From Burkholderia sp. NRF60-BP8 (lineage in GTDB: Bacteria; Pseudomonadota; Gammaproteobacteria; Burkholderiales; Burkholderiaceae): a stretch of 64,000 nucleotides of DNA. This document shows positions 200 through 3,904 of this stretch, in pieces. The notes beneath the pieces were generated by a model, which ran no database searches, was not told the DNA's origin, and was given only the letters and a program-made list of their open reading frames with translations. The position numbers and the translations under genes were made by a program. Within the stretch, counting starts at the first letter, position 1. Each line of letters begins with the position of its first letter. The stretch covers positions 1,674,001-1,738,000 of the forward strand of contig NZ_CP013372.1 in NCBI RefSeq assembly GCF_001522585.2. Direction: 5' to 3'.

Positions 200-535
200 A
201 TGAAGCATCGCCTGTTCGCCGCCTCGTTCGCCCTGGCTGCCTCGCTTCTGGCCACGTCCTCTTCATTTGCCGCCGGCACGTCCGGCATCATCTACTTCAC
301 CGGCATGATCGTCGAGCCTCCGTGCTCGTTCGCGCTCGACGCGGCCGGCACCGCGCCCGCGCGCGTGCGCGCCGACTGCCCGCGCCCCGCGACCGGGCAG
401 ATCGCGTTCGTCGATGCGGCGAGCATGCAGGCCGTGAAGACCACGACCTTCACCCAGGCTTCTCGCGCAATCGTTTTACCGAATCGTCCGGGCAACGACC
501 ACACGCCGATGATCGCCGTCGTCACGTATCAGTAA
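200..535 (+). CDS. small exported fimbrial-like protein
   Basis: A predicted exported protein of 111 residues. Residues 1-25 form a signal peptide ending SFAA. The mature N-terminus (G-I-I-Y-F-T-G-x-I-V-E-x-x-C) resembles the start of type 1-like fimbrial subunits. Cys42 and Cys60 could form the usual disulfide, and the protein ends V-V-T-Y-Q, like the tyrosine-bearing last strand of such subunits. It is clearly shorter than normal pilins (150-180 residues), and no chaperone or usher gene is nearby. The start has a GGAG seven bases upstream. It could be a reduced pilin-fold protein or an unrelated small periplasmic protein; the function is not established. Confidence 0.7.
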   Translation: MKHRLFAASFALAASLLATSSSFAAGTSGIIYFTGMIVEPPCSFALDAAGTAPARVRADCPRPATGQIAFVDAASMQAVKTTTFTQASRAIVLPNRPGNDHTPMIAVVTYQ

Positions 536-599
536 CGCCCGGCGCCGGTGCGGCATGCAAGAGGTTCCGCGCGTCCGGTTCGCGCCGTGAAATCGCCCG

Positions 600-1472
600 T
601 CAGTCGCGATGGCAGGCGATCCAGTCGCTGAACGCGCGGATCTTCTGCTGGCTGCCGAGGTTCTCCGGATAGACGAAGTAGTAGCGTGCGCCGGTTTCGA
701 GCACGATGTCGAACGGCCGTTCGAGCCGGCGCGCGCTGACGTCGTCGTCGACGAGCGTCACGTCGCCGATCGCGACGCCGAAGCCCTGCATCGCCGCGTT
801 CGTCGCGAGATCGAGCGTGTCGAACGTCGGCCCGCGCGCGGGATCCACACGACGCTCGCCCGCATGCTCGAGCCATGCGCGCCAGTCGCGATGGTCGCGC
901 GTCGGATGCAGCAGCGTATGGCGCGCGAGATCGCCGGTTGCGTCGAGCGGCGACGCCTGCCGCAGTTCGGGCGCACATACGGGTGTCAGCCGTTCGTCGA
1001 ACAGCGGCAGCGCGACGACGCCCGGACCCGGCGACATCCCGTAGACGATCGCCGCATCGAACGGCTCGCTCGAAAAATCGACGACGTGCTGCCACGCGGT
1101 CGTGATCTGCACGTGGAGATCGGGATGCTCGCCCTGAAAGCGCATGATGCGCGGCAGCATCCAGCGGATCACGCAGGTCGGCACCTTCAGCGCGAGATCG
1201 GTGCGTTGCCGCGTGAGCTTCATCGAGATGTCCTCGATGCGCGCGAAGCTTTCGTCGACCACCGGCAACAACTGCTCGCCCTCGGCCGTCAGCGTGAGGC
1301 CCTTCGCATGCCGCTTGAACAGCGGAAAACCGTAATGCGCCTCGAGCGTCTGGATCTGCCGGCTCACGGCGCCCTGCGTGAGACACAGCTGCTCGGCCGC
1401 ACGCGTGAAGCTGCGGTGGCGAGCCACCGTCGAGAAGATCTGCAGCGCGTGCAGGGGCGGAAGTCGGCGCAT
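600..1472 (-). CDS. LysR-family transcriptional regulator (GcvA/AmpR-like)
   Basis: A DNA-binding regulator of 290 residues. The N-terminal winged helix-turn-helix covers about residues 5-65 (SFTRAAEQLCLTQGAVSRQI). The rest is the periplasmic-binding-like effector domain. The HTH and linker look like the GcvA/AmpR branch. It lies 116 bp downstream of the beta-lactamase-like gene on the same strand, not divergent from it as ampR/penR genes usually are, so I do not call it penR. The ATG at 1472 matches the usual LysR N-terminus (M-R-R-L-P-P-L-H-A-L-Q). The target is unknown; the gene may read through from the nlpD/beta-lactamase-like transcript. Confidence 0.9.
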   Translation of the reverse strand: MRRLPPLHALQIFSTVARHRSFTRAAEQLCLTQGAVSRQIQTLEAHYGFPLFKRHAKGLTLTAEGEQLLPVVDESFARIEDISMKLTRQRTDLALKVPTCVIRWMLPRIMRFQGEHPDLHVQITTAWQHVVDFSSEPFDAAIVYGMSPGPGVVALPLFDERLTPVCAPELRQASPLDATGDLARHTLLHPTRDHRDWRAWLEHAGERRVDPARGPTFDTLDLATNAAMQGFGVAIGDVTLVDDDVSARRLERPFDIVLETGARYYFVYPENLGSQQKIRAFSDWIACHRD

Positions 1473-1588
1473 GGCGAACGGGAAACAGGAAACGGCGAGG
1501 AAACGGCACGGAAGGACCGCGCGTCGAGCCGACGCGCGCTGTTCGACACGATAAGCCAAACGCCGGCTTTGCGCGAGACGCTGAATGC

Positions 1589-2488
1589 TCAGGCCGTCGC
1601 GGTCAGCGCGCCCGCCGCGATGCGCGCCGCCGCTGCGACGACATCCGCGCGCGCGGCGGCGGCAGCCTCCGGCTGCGTGAACGACACGGCCATCACGATC
1701 GGTGCGCGCGACGGCGGCCACAGCACCGCGACGTCCGTCGTCGTGCCGAAGCCGCCGTTGCCGGCCTTGTCGGCCACGCGCCAGCCGGGCGGCACGCCCG
1801 CCGCGATGCCGGTCGCCCCGCGTGCGCCGCCGACCATCCATTCCGTCAGTTGCGCGCGCTGCGGCTCGCGCAGCGCGTCGCCGAGCAGCAACCGCTGCAG
1901 CGTGTCGACCATCGCGACCGGCGTCGACGTGTCGCGCTCGTCGCCGGGCGTCGCCTGGTTCAGTTCGGGTTCCCAGTGATCGAGGCGGAAGGTCGTGTCG
2001 CCGCTTTCGCGCGCGAACGCGGTGACGGCCTGCGGGCCGCCGAGCACGCCCATCAGCAGGTTGCCCGCGCTCTTGTCGCCCGACTGCAGCATCGCCGCGC
2101 ACAGCTGCGCGATCGTCATGCCGGTGTCGACGTGGCTTTCCGTAATCGGCGAGCCGGACACGATTTCATAGCGGCGGTACAGGATGCGGCGCGGCAGCAG
2201 CGATGCGTCGAGCGAGCCGCGCGCGAGCATCGCGGCGGCCGCCATGACCGCATACGTGCCGCACAGCGGGAAGCGCTCGCGCGCATGGTGCGCGATGCGC
2301 ACGCCGTTCGACGTATCGAGCGCGGCGACGCCGAGCCGCCCGTTCGATGCTTTTTCGAGCGCGGCGAGTTCGGCTTGTGCGGTGCGTGCGCGCCCCTGGT
2401 CGGCGACCGGCGCGGACGTGCACGCGGCAACGAACGGCGCGGCAACGGCGGCGAGCAACAGCGAGCGGCGTGTCGGAGAGTGTTCCAT
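1589..2488 (-). CDS. class A beta-lactamase-like Tat lipoprotein with degenerate active site
   Basis: A 299-residue homologue of Burkholderia PenA, colinear with it as far as I can align by eye. Residues 1-23 hold a twin-arginine signal (R7-R8-S) and a lipobox ending at Cys23, as in the PenA lipoproteins. Own numbering minus 7 gives Ambler numbering. The catalytic Ser70 is Gly77 and Lys73 is Ala80 (C-G-T-Y-A). The S-D-N triad is G137-D138-K139, and K-T-G is K241-A242-G243. Glu166 (E173) and Asn170 (N177) are kept. The frame is fully open, so this reads as a pseudoenzyme, not a decayed gene. It follows the NlpD-like gene, the order known for nlpD1-penA in B. pseudomallei. A role in binding peptidoglycan or in regulation is only a guess. 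Confidence 0.9.
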   Translation of the reverse strand: MEHSPTRRSLLLAAVAAPFVAACTSAPVADQGRARTAQAELAALEKASNGRLGVAALDTSNGVRIAHHARERFPLCGTYAVMAAAAMLARGSLDASLLPRRILYRRYEIVSGSPITESHVDTGMTIAQLCAAMLQSGDKSAGNLLMGVLGGPQAVTAFARESGDTTFRLDHWEPELNQATPGDERDTSTPVAMVDTLQRLLLGDALREPQRAQLTEWMVGGARGATGIAAGVPPGWRVADKAGNGGFGTTTDVAVLWPPSRAPIVMAVSFTQPEAAAAARADVVAAAARIAAGALTATA

Positions 2489-2699
2489 GAATGAGGTCTG
2501 TTCTGTCGGAAACGATGGCTCGAAGCAACGCGGCCGCGCGTCGGCGACGCGCGACCGTTCACGCCGACGGGCGGCCCGCGACGGCATTCGCCGCGCATCC
2601 CCGAAAGACACCCGTCGGCCCCGCGCGAAGGCGGGATTCGCATGAACAGACCCTAGCGTAGCAGCGACCGCCGTCGCGTTCCAGCGAAACGGCCGCGCG

Positions 2700-3557
2700 T
2701 CACCCTTGCGACGAAGGCAGATACGGCATCGGATTCACCGGCTTGCCGTCGCGTCGCACCTCGAACAGCAGCGCGACGCGCGAGTTGTCGAGATCGCCCA
2801 TCTCGGCGATCGCATCGCCCTGATGCACGATGTCGCCGGTCTTCACGAGCAGCTTGCGGTTGTGCGCATAGGCAGTCAGAAAATCGGCGTTGTGCTGGAC
2901 GATGATCAGGCTGCCGTAATCGTTCAGGCCGGTGCCCGCATACATCACGCGGCCGTCGGCCGCGGCGCGAACCGGGTCGCCCGGCCGGCCGGCGATCTGG
3001 ATGCCGCGGTTCTGCCCGGGCCGGAACCCGTCGACGACCTTGCCGGTCGCGGGCCACTTGAGCGCGACGCGGCCCGCATGACGCCTGGTTTCCTTGACGA
3101 CCTCGCGATCGCTCGCGGTCGACGCGGCGGCTTGCGAATTGGCCTGCGCGGTTGCCTGGTTACCCACCGCGCCATTGCTCGCCACGGCTTGCGTGTCCGC
3201 CGCGCGCGCCGGCGGCAGCGGCTGCTGCTTGACGATGCGCAGCACCTGCCCCATGCGCAGCCTGCCGTTGGCGGTCAGCTTGTTCCAGGTGCGCAAGTCG
3301 GCCACGCTGCAATCGTTGGCGGATGCGATGCCCGTCAGCGTGTCGCCGCGTTTCACGACGTACTTTTGCGCGACGAGAATCGGCGCAGGCGGCATCGCGG
3401 CGGCCGACGGAGCGACGGGCGGGCTCGAATCGGAAGGCTGCCCCGCCAGCGTGTCGCTCGGCGGAACGGACTGGGGACTTGCACAACCGGCCATCACGAG
3501 CACGGCGGCCAGGCCCGACAGCCACGCCGCCTTGCGGTGAATCTCGCGCGTTTTCAT
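2700..3557 (-). CDS. nlpD: NlpD-like LysM/M23 lipoprotein, amidase activator
   Basis: A 285-residue outer-membrane lipoprotein with a lipobox at Cys25. A LysM peptidoglycan-binding module lies near residues 85-135 (YVVKRGDTLTGIA). An Ala/Gln-rich linker follows, and a LytM/M23 domain fills the C-terminal 130 residues. The zinc-ligand positions are lost (N-R-G-I for H-x-G-I, L-L-F for L-H-F), as in E. coli NlpD, which activates the amidase AmiC instead of cutting peptidoglycan. It is the first gene of a minus-strand group with the beta-lactamase-like gene 211 bp downstream, matching nlpD1-penA of B. pseudomallei. The start at 3557 puts the signal peptide at the N-terminus. Confidence 0.9.
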   Translation of the reverse strand: MKTREIHRKAAWLSGLAAVLVMAGCASPQSVPPSDTLAGQPSDSSPPVAPSAAAMPPAPILVAQKYVVKRGDTLTGIASANDCSVADLRTWNKLTANGRLRMGQVLRIVKQQPLPPARAADTQAVASNGAVGNQATAQANSQAAASTASDREVVKETRRHAGRVALKWPATGKVVDGFRPGQNRGIQIAGRPGDPVRAAADGRVMYAGTGLNDYGSLIIVQHNADFLTAYAHNRKLLVKTGDIVHQGDAIAEMGDLDNSRVALLFEVRRDGKPVNPMPYLPSSQG

Positions 3558-3793
3558 GGACGATCCGACTCCGGTTTGACAATCTTTCAAGCATCTCAAA
3601 AACGGAACGGCCGACGTGTAACCGGATGCAAACAATGATGACAAACGATCACGGACCGGATGCAGGCCGGCATTCGCTACCGGTAATACGGTCCGATCCG
3701 GAAAAACTTGATGGTCTTTTCGCAGAAAAACGGAAGAATTTTCGTTGCCGAAAACTATGGCCGGGATGTTTCAATAGGCGCAAGCCACGCCAT

Positions 3794-3904
3794 TCATCGC
3801 AACCATGCGACGAATTCGGCGCCGGCCCATGCGACGCCGATGCACAGGAACAGCAGATGCAGCGCGATCTTGAACGACACGCCCCAGGACGAATCGATCT
3901 GCAT
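3794..3904 (-). CDS. small single-pass membrane protein, 36 residues
   Basis: A short reading frame of 36 codons that encodes a polar N-terminus (M-Q-I-D-S-S-W) followed by one hydrophobic helix of about 22 residues (from A-L-H-L-L-F to F-V-A-W-L), ending in Arg. A strong Shine-Dalgarno sequence (GAGGGAG) sits six bases before the ATG at 3904, which is the main reason to accept it. It lies alone between the divergent nlpD-like and LysR genes. I do not recognise the family. Sequence alone cannot show that it is translated. Confidence 0.5.
   Translation of the reverse strand: MQIDSSWGVSFKIALHLLFLCIGVAWAGAEFVAWLR

What the first reader, a model, noticed from the sequence alone, without database searches (positions are those of the whole stretch)
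1589..2488. PenA-like beta-lactamase that has lost its catalytic residues
The protein aligns without gaps to class A PenA enzymes by eye (offset 7), yet Ser70, Lys73, Ser130, Asn132 and Thr235 are Gly, Ala, Gly, Lys and Ala. Glu166, Asn170, Lys234, the Tat signal and the lipobox are kept, and the frame is intact. It sits in the nlpD-penA position, so it may be a peptidoglycan-binding or regulatory pseudoenzyme kept beside an amidase activator.
Basis: partly seen in the sequence, partly recalled or inferred. Interest (0 to 1): 0.75.

Follow-up and report, generated by a model that had tools for sequence, protein, structure and literature searches.

The report
Dead PenA lactamase kept by selection
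Bacteria of the Burkholderia cepacia group keep, beside the gene of a predicted cell-wall-amidase activator, a relative of the antibiotic-destroying enzyme PenA whose catalytic residues are gone but whose protein sequence is under strong purifying selection, so it likely works by binding a partner rather than as an enzyme; the protein (PenA*) is already in print, but what it does is not known.

Summary
Observation confirmed: minus-strand gene 2488..1589 encodes a 299-aa class A fold protein with Ser70, Lys73, Ser130, Asn132 and Thr235 replaced by Gly, Ala, Gly, Lys and Ala. It is not new: it is PenA* of the Burkholderia cepacia complex (PMC7157819, 2020), reported inactive for B. ubonensis and solved as 5IHV and 5HX9. 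Added here: (1) 53 of 65 Burkholderia genomes carry it, 52 seen beside nlpD and one cut by a contig end; all 53 also carry an intact PenB; it is one clade. (3) The old cleft has lost the extra conservation it has in live enzymes, Tyr105 and Arg220 included, which speaks against muropeptide binding there. (4) Residues 93-107 (Ambler 86-100) became conserved in this clade. (5) A covarying hairpin lies in the leader. Best reading: an envelope pseudoenzyme that likely binds a partner through a new surface, perhaps in the NlpD1 amidase pathway. The partner is unproven; co-evolution with NlpD1 was not specific.

The parts
1589..2488 (-). penA*: class A beta-lactamase homologue without catalytic residues, 299 aa, stop included
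2420..2470 (-). residues 7-23: twin-arginine signal (RR) to lipobox cysteine C23
   Evidence: sequence; R7, R8 and C23 invariant in 53 of 53
2249..2260 (-). residues 77-80 GTYA at Ambler 70-73 (SxxK lost)
2153..2155 (-). residue 112, Gly at Ambler 105 (Gly in 51 of 53)
2072..2080 (-). residues 137-139 GDK at Ambler 130-132 (SDN lost)
1958..1972 (-). residues 173-177 EPELN, Ambler 166-170, kept
1808..1810 (-). residue 227, Gly at Ambler 220 (Gly in 53 of 53, Arg in 63 of 63 live)
1760..1768 (-). residues 241-243 KAG at Ambler 234-236
2168..2212 (-). residues 93-107, segment that slowed in the dead clade (LDASLLPRRILYRRY), proposed new contact surface
   Evidence: loop and short helix in the model
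2531..2557 (-). hairpin in the leader, ends 42 nt before the ATG, with compensatory changes
2700..3557 (-). nlpD1: LysM plus LytM (M23) lipoprotein, predicted amidase activator
600..1472 (-). GcvA/AmpR-like LysR regulator downstream, conserved neighbour

Best explanation
The gene at 2488..1589 is penA*, a class A beta-lactamase homologue without Ser70, Lys73, Ser130 and Asn132 that is under purifying selection, and its product is predicted to be a Tat-exported envelope lipoprotein that likely works by binding a partner protein or polymer through a new surface segment (residues 93-107) rather than through its former cleft. Shown by calls: the residue losses, the conserved locus, one clade, purifying selection, loss of the cleft's extra conservation, and the newly conserved segment. 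In print: the B. ubonensis protein does not hydrolyse nitrocefin or let E. coli grow on ampicillin. Inferred: that the segment is an exposed contact surface. Inferred and weaker: that the partner lies in the NlpD1 amidase-activation pathway, nlpD1 being the upstream gene (co-transcribed with penA in B. pseudomallei, not shown for this genome) and its product itself a LytM protein with replaced metal ligands. Likely history: a second active enzyme (PenB, PenR-linked) took over antibiotic defence, which freed the nlpD1-linked copy to be rebuilt as a non-enzyme.
For: Ser70, Lys73, Ser130 and Asn132 absent in 53 of 53 nlpD-site sequences of this clade, one clade 100/100. omega 0.094 against 0.119 (PenB), 0.110 (active nlpD-linked PenA), 0.133 (nlpD), 0.042 (lysR); omega fixed at 1 costs 1352 log units; close pairs give a median of 0.22 against 0.333 for PenB. 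Cleft conservation present in live relatives and absent in the dead clade for all four position sets tried. Segment 93-107 slowed, 0 of 2000 permutations at window 15; Ambler L86, D87, R93, L96, R98, R99 and Y100 are each 53 of 53 in the dead clade, and the same residue has 8 or fewer of 63 in live relatives for R93, R98, R99 and D87. 53 of 53 PenA* genomes carry PenB; 9 genomes with a live nlpD-linked gene have no second match at 1e-60, and 2 with a PenR-linked gene have nlpD followed by lysR with no bla between. nlpD beside penA* in 52 of 53, the other cut by a contig end; lysR in 53 of 53. Fold kept: model pLDDT 89.5; 5IHV TM 0.85 by query length and 0.97 by target length. Published nitrocefin and growth data (PMC7157819, passages).
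Against: No partner is shown. PenA* distances follow NlpD distances (partial 0.38) hardly better than PenB's do (0.32), and less well than PenA* follows PenB (0.57), so there is no specific co-evolution with NlpD1. The segment signal depends on window and subset: with all 53 rows 0 to 3 of 1000 permutations reach it at window 15, 6 to 31 at window 11 and 35 to 100 at window 21; in the nine deep lineages alone 49 to 58 of 1000 at window 15, and nothing at 11 or 21; in the other 44 rows 9 of 1000 at 15, 216 at 11, 102 at 21. RR at Ambler 93-94 is also seen in some active enzymes. The cleft evolves clearly faster than the rest only with the 28-position list that I chose after seeing (p 0.0098); with three narrower lists it is just not conserved (p 0.15 to 0.46). 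In B. thailandensis the penA orthologue is reported to respond from its own promoter, apart from nlpD1 (PMC9426598, passages), which weakens the operon argument. A genome-wide screen of B. cenocepacia K56-2 reported no fitness role for the other beta-lactamase-fold proteins in the conditions tested (PMC10412643, passages), and the B. ubonensis deletion did not affect the amoxicillin MIC. All 53 sequences descend from one event, so the PenB association is one or few events, not 53.
Confidence: 0.42

Rival explanations
1. The former active site still binds, without cutting, a peptidoglycan fragment or stem peptide, so PenA* is a muropeptide sensor or carrier.
For: Fold and omega loop kept; Lys234 kept in 47 of 53 and Lys132 in 50 of 53; in 5IHV an ethanediol from the crystallisation solution forms the contacts lost with Lys73 (PMC12073871, passages).
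Against: The cleft is not conserved above the rest of the protein; Tyr105, Arg220, Ser130 and mostly Thr235 are gone.
Confidence: 0.18
2. The rebuilt pocket (Glu166, Lys132, Asn170, Lys234) has a new catalytic activity on another substrate.
For: Glu166 53 of 53, Asn170 52 of 53, position 132 Lys/Arg/Gln 50/2/1.
Against: No nucleophile is seen in place of Ser70; the cleft as a whole is not conserved above background; Glu166, Asn170, Asn136 and Asp179 can be kept for the omega loop alone.
Confidence: 0.08
3. PenA* is a beta-lactam decoy or sensor that helps resistance by binding the drug.
For: Same export signals and locus as active PenA; beta-lactamase fold.
Against: Recognition residues gone; in the passages seen, the beta-lactamases named as meropenem-induced in J2315 are BCAM2165 (PenR-linked) and the class C BCAS0156 (PMC3155924); K56-2 screen negative; no amoxicillin MIC effect of deletion in B. 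ubonensis.
Confidence: 0.04
4. A relic in slow decay, kept only by linkage to nlpD1 and lysR.
For: Two genomes have no bla gene at this site; one listed cluster (P0025) does not match over the last quarter.
Against: omega 0.094 and 53 of 53 open frames across 53 species-level genomes; 91 invariant positions after residue 36.
Confidence: 0.03
5. The partner is the downstream LysR regulator's circuit, that is, PenA* tunes an AmpR-like induction system.
For: lysR neighbour in 53 of 53 and strongly conserved.
Against: The regulator is expected in the cytoplasm and the protein is predicted periplasmic; lysR stays in place where bla is absent and beside six of nine live nlpD-linked genes.
Confidence: 0.08

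Closest known systems
PenA* of the Burkholderia cepacia complex (Somprasong et al. 2020, PMC7157819, passages and section 10 read; said there to be first noted in B. multivorans by Becka et al. 2018, seen only as a reference)
   Same: Same protein: nlpD1-linked, Tat and lipobox kept, SxxK, SDN and Y/W105 lost with conserved replacements, ExxLN kept, K(T/R/A)G, PenB present elsewhere.
   Different: Nothing in kind. The paper compared five Bcc species; here 53 genomes, selection, cleft conservation, segment 93-107 and leader hairpin are added.
5IHV (B. ambifaria) and 5HX9 (B. vietnamiensis), deposited as beta-lactamases
   Same: 89% and 85% identity to the window protein, same fold; 5IHV is placed in an inactive beta-lactamase group by PMC12073871 (passages).
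   Different: No partner or function given in what I read.
PenA/PenI/PenL of the B. pseudomallei complex (active)
   Same: Behind nlpD, as here; operon with nlpD1 reported for B. pseudomallei (PMC6045580, passages).
   Different: Active-site residues present; the nine live nlpD-linked genes are 53-58% identical to the window protein.
PenB, PenR-linked class A enzyme of the cepacia complex
   Same: Same fold and similar export signals, same genomes.
   Different: Active-site residues intact; different locus; separate clade 100/99.
LRA-5, a metagenomic class A protein that confers no resistance as found (PMC12777564, search listing with start of abstract)
   Same: Class A protein without resistance activity as found.
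   Different: Different source and low identity to known enzymes; only the start of the abstract was seen.

Membership tests
Active class A beta-lactamase | Ser70 and Lys73 (SxxK) | tested here: not met
   Gly and Ala; absent in 53 of 53
Active class A beta-lactamase | SDN at 130-132 | tested here: not met
   GDK
Active class A beta-lactamase | Glu166 and Asn170 | tested here: met
   E173, N177
Active class A beta-lactamase | KTG at 234-236 | tested here: not met
   KAG here; Thr235 in 7 of 53
Active class A beta-lactamase | Hydrolysis of beta-lactams | not testable with these tools
   Published negative for B. ubonensis PenA*
Class A beta-lactamase fold | Profile and structure match | tested here: met
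   NF033103 292 bits over 200, PF13354, 5IHV TM 0.85/0.97
PenA* of the Bcc | Linked behind nlpD1 | tested here: met
   52 of 53, one cut by contig end
PenA* of the Bcc | Lacks SxxK, SDN and Y/W105, keeps ExxLN, Tat and lipobox | tested here: met
PenA* of the Bcc | Coexists with PenB | tested here: met
   Own genome; 53 of 53
Pseudoenzyme with a selected function | Purifying selection on the protein | tested here: met
   omega 0.094
Pseudoenzyme with a selected function | A demonstrated non-catalytic role | not testable with these tools
   none shown here or in the passages read
Muropeptide-binding cleft | Cleft conserved above background | tested here: not met

The most novel reading that the evidence does not exclude
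PenA* is a beta-lactamase turned adaptor: once PenB took over drug defence, the nlpD1-linked copy lost its cleft and built a new basic docking face (LDxxLLxRRxLYRRY, just before the Ambler 104-105 loop, near the loop-helix region that BLIP proteins are reported to grip on TEM-1), and with NlpD1, itself a LytM protein without the usual metal ligands, it forms a two-pseudoenzyme lipoprotein unit that switches cell-wall amidases.
Probability: 0.2. Interest if true: 0.7.

Novelty: already known. Interest (0 to 1): 0.38.

Why it matters
The authors of the 2020 paper wrote that they do not yet know why these bacteria maintain the protein. The numbers here say that the protein sequence itself is under selection, that the old pocket is probably not the reason, and which 15 residues to test first. 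It would be a case of an antibiotic-resistance enzyme recruited to another task. Practical point: the protein passes NCBI's class A beta-lactamase cut-off and is named so in databases, so resistance annotation counts a protein that is reported, for one species, to have no beta-lactamase activity.

Tried and rejected
Decay or sequencing error: rejected, 53 of 53 open frames and omega 0.094. Several origins: not supported, one clade 100/100. Dead relatives outside the genus: none seen; 29 of 29 Bradyrhizobium loci and 93 of 93 listed more distant proteins P0030-P0122 keep Ser70 and Lys73, whereas 27 of 27 closer clusters P0003-P0029 lack Ser70; only the best 120 of 1353 hits were listed and looked at, out of 8000 scored candidates. 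NlpD1 co-evolution by distance correlation (49 of 53 genomes used): not specific. Sigma-70 promoter scan of 500-3900: none found.

With three other lists the cleft is unconserved in the dead clade (0.552, 0.601 and 0.590 against 0.498, 0.499 and 0.494) but not clearly faster than the rest; live relatives stay conserved (0.243, 0.073, 0.363). I therefore claim loss of conservation, not acceleration, and moved the best explanation from 0.45 to 0.42 and the muropeptide rival from 0.15 to 0.18.

The leader hairpin scan was positive only in part: a stem ending 38 to 45 nt before the ATG was the best hairpin in 24 of the 52 PenA* leaders examined and in 1 of 9 live ones. The covariation count used 38 of the 53 leaders; the nine deep lineages and L031, L039 and L042 to L045 were left out, and the structure was taken from the window's own sequence. 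The permutation test of segment 93-107 was made first with window 15; windows 11 and 21 and subsets were then run and are reported as they came. Rows dropped: L066 and L070 (incomplete PenB) from tree and omega; L059 and L060 from the PenB omega set; L031 and L039 from the nlpD set.

Full report
What is there. The gene lies on the minus strand, 2488..1589, and encodes 299 aa with twin arginines at 7-8 and a lipobox cysteine at 23. It matches class A beta-lactamase profiles well above the curated cut-off (292 bits against 200; PF13354). Residue number minus 7 is the Ambler number at the motifs, so positions 70, 73, 130, 132 and 235 are Gly, Ala, Gly, Lys and Ala, and 166, 170 and 234 are Glu, Asn and Lys. 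The own genome holds one more class A match, at C1:2059288-2060127, outside the window, with CSTFK, SDN and KTG intact and a divergent LysR-type regulator beside it.

It is known. A paper on B. ubonensis (PMC7157819; passages, section 10) calls this protein PenA*, says that B. cepacia complex bacteria have PenA* and PenB, that PenA* lacks SxxK, SDN and Y/W105 with remarkably conserved replacements, that PenA* expressed in the E. coli periplasm gives neither growth on ampicillin nor nitrocefin hydrolysis, and that the authors do not yet know why it is maintained. Two crystal structures of the group exist: 5IHV from B. ambifaria and 5HX9 from B. vietnamiensis. [quoted passage not shown]

Distribution and origin. 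Of 65 genomes of the genus searched, 53 carry the dead form and 12 do not. Each of the 53 also carries an intact second gene (sets equal). Of the 12, nine have a live gene behind nlpD (L055-L058, L061-L065), two have a live PenR-linked gene (L059, L060) and, at the nlpD site, nlpD followed by lysR about 120 bases on with no bla match between, and one is an incomplete genome with a partial gene on a short contig (G057). The residues at 70, 73, 130, 132, 166, 170, 234 and 235 were intact in the 63 non-PenA* rows counted; the two incomplete rows L066 and L070 show the same motifs. In a tree of 121 rows the dead form is one clade with 100/100 support on a stem of 0.41, PenB another with 100/99. 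So among these genomes the nlpD-linked gene is live only where no second class A match is found, and dead or absent where there is one. This fits release by redundancy, but it rests on few independent events.

Selection. With one codon model, omega is 0.094 for 53 PenA* genes, 0.119 for 52 PenB, 0.110 for nine live nlpD-linked genes, 0.133 for 51 nlpD and 0.042 for 53 lysR. Fixing omega at 1 lowers the log-likelihood from -12230.8 to -13582.4 for PenA*. By a counting method on pairs with dS between 0.05 and 0.5, the median is 0.22 for PenA* (1262 pairs) and 0.333 for PenB (1322 pairs). The two methods differ in level but agree that PenA* is no less constrained than its active relatives.

Where the constraint sits. 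Counting the residues in 53 dead and 63 live sequences, the dead clade has replaced Ser70 (Gly 51, Ala 2), Lys73 (Ala 52, Thr 1), Tyr105 (Gly 51), Ser130 (Gly 50), Asn132 (Lys 50, Arg 2, Gln 1), Arg220 (Gly 53) and mostly Thr235 (Ala 38, Thr 7), Asn214 (Gly 42) and Asp276 (Ala 49). Glu166 (53), Asn170 (52), Asp131 (53), Asn136 (53), Asp179 (53), Cys69 and Cys123 (53 each) are kept. That set reads as fold and omega loop, not catalysis; the roles are recalled from class A enzymes. Site rates: in live relatives the cleft is conserved, in the dead clade it is not. With 28 cleft positions, listed after I had seen, the mean rate rank is 0.635 against 0.486 elsewhere in the dead clade (p 0.0098) and 0.378 against 0.517 in live relatives (p 0.016), and the same direction holds in the nine deep lineages and in the 44 others. 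With 17 recalled textbook positions it is 0.552 against 0.498 (p 0.46) in dead and 0.243 against 0.520 (p 0.0001) in live; with the eight catalytic positions 0.601 against 0.499 and 0.073 against 0.516. So the safe claim is that the extra conservation is lost, not that the cleft speeds up.

The new segment. Residues 93-107 (Ambler 86-100) slowed most: shift -0.41, reached in 0 of 2000 permutations at window 15. The same stretch is the top one against PenB alone (3 of 1000) and against live nlpD-linked genes alone (0 of 1000), while PenB against live nlpD-linked genes gives no significant stretch. It is weaker at window 11 (6 to 31 of 1000) and 21 (35 to 100 of 1000), and in subsets: nine deep lineages 49 to 58 of 1000 at window 15 and not significant at the others; 44 other rows 9, 216 and 102 of 1000 at windows 15, 11 and 21. 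The pattern LDxxLLxRRxLYRRY varies little through the listed PenA* rows and the 27 clusters (LM for LL in two). In the model it is a well-predicted loop and short helix between helix 79-93 and the Ambler 104-105 loop. [quoted passage not shown] that this region is next to Ambler 86-100 is my recollection of its numbering. Solvent exposure was not computed.

Expression. In B. pseudomallei penA is co-transcribed with nlpD1 and a 49-nt palindrome between them is reported as attenuator (PMC6045580, passages); in B. thailandensis the orthologue is reported to be induced from its own promoter (PMC9426598, passages). Here a 12-bp hairpin at 2531-2557 ends 42 nt before the ATG. In 38 leaders of the PenA* clade 93.3% of cells pair, with 30 cells changed on both sides against 8.9 by shuffling (0 of 500) and far fewer in slid registers; the number of pairs with a two-sided change is less striking (6 against 3.8, 38 of 500). 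So the leader element appears to be kept too. Whether it terminates, attenuates or is a DNA operator is untested.

Mechanism. The protein is predicted to be exported and anchored, is not expected to cut beta-lactams (published negative for B. ubonensis; Ser70 absent here), and is kept for something that needs the fold and a basic segment but apparently not the cleft. Binding of a partner through that segment is the simplest reading. The first partner to test is NlpD1 or its amidase, because of the shared locus and because NlpD1 is itself a LytM protein in which three metal-ligand positions (motif recalled) read N, Q/E/R and L/S instead of H, D and H in the six sequences aligned. Distance correlation gave no specific support: PenA*-NlpD 0.38, PenB-NlpD 0.32, PenA*-PenB 0.57 after removing lysR and penR. 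A transposon screen in K56-2 found no role for the other beta-lactamase-fold proteins under the conditions tested (PMC10412643, passages; that PenA* is among them is my inference).

Verdict. A real, conserved pseudoenzyme, already described as PenA*. The added content is quantitative: selection, one clade, exclusion with PenB, loss of extra conservation in the cleft, gain of conservation at 93-107, and a covarying leader hairpin. Papers were searched; the claim that no function is in print rests on these searches of an open-access library only.

Noticed in passing
[quoted passage not shown] position resembles the penA attenuator reported for B. pseudomallei.
   Followed up: partly
window 600-1472 (-): GcvA/AmpR-type LysR regulator next to penA* in 53 of 53 genomes, omega 0.042; also present in two genomes where the bla gene is absent; below cut-off for PenR (176 of 625 bits). 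Target unknown.
   Followed up: partly
L175 and L176 (genomes G052, G025): nlpD followed by lysR with no bla match between; the only class A match at 1e-60 in these genomes is PenR-linked.
   Followed up: partly
window 2700-3557 (-): NlpD1 LytM domain has other residues at three of the usual M23 metal-ligand positions (motif recalled), so two neighbouring envelope lipoproteins both look like degenerate enzymes.
   Followed up: partly
P0025: 371-aa cluster of one Burkholderia strain that matches penA* only over 75% of the query and not over its end; perhaps a rare broken allele.
   Followed up: no
databases: penA* passes the curated NCBI cut-off for class A beta-lactamase and carries that name; three JGI-sourced clusters are named class C. 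Resistance annotation is misleading here.
   Followed up: partly
window 200-535 (+): 111-aa protein with a signal-like N-terminus, conserved neighbour at the far side of lysR in 53 of 53 genomes, function not looked up.
   Followed up: no
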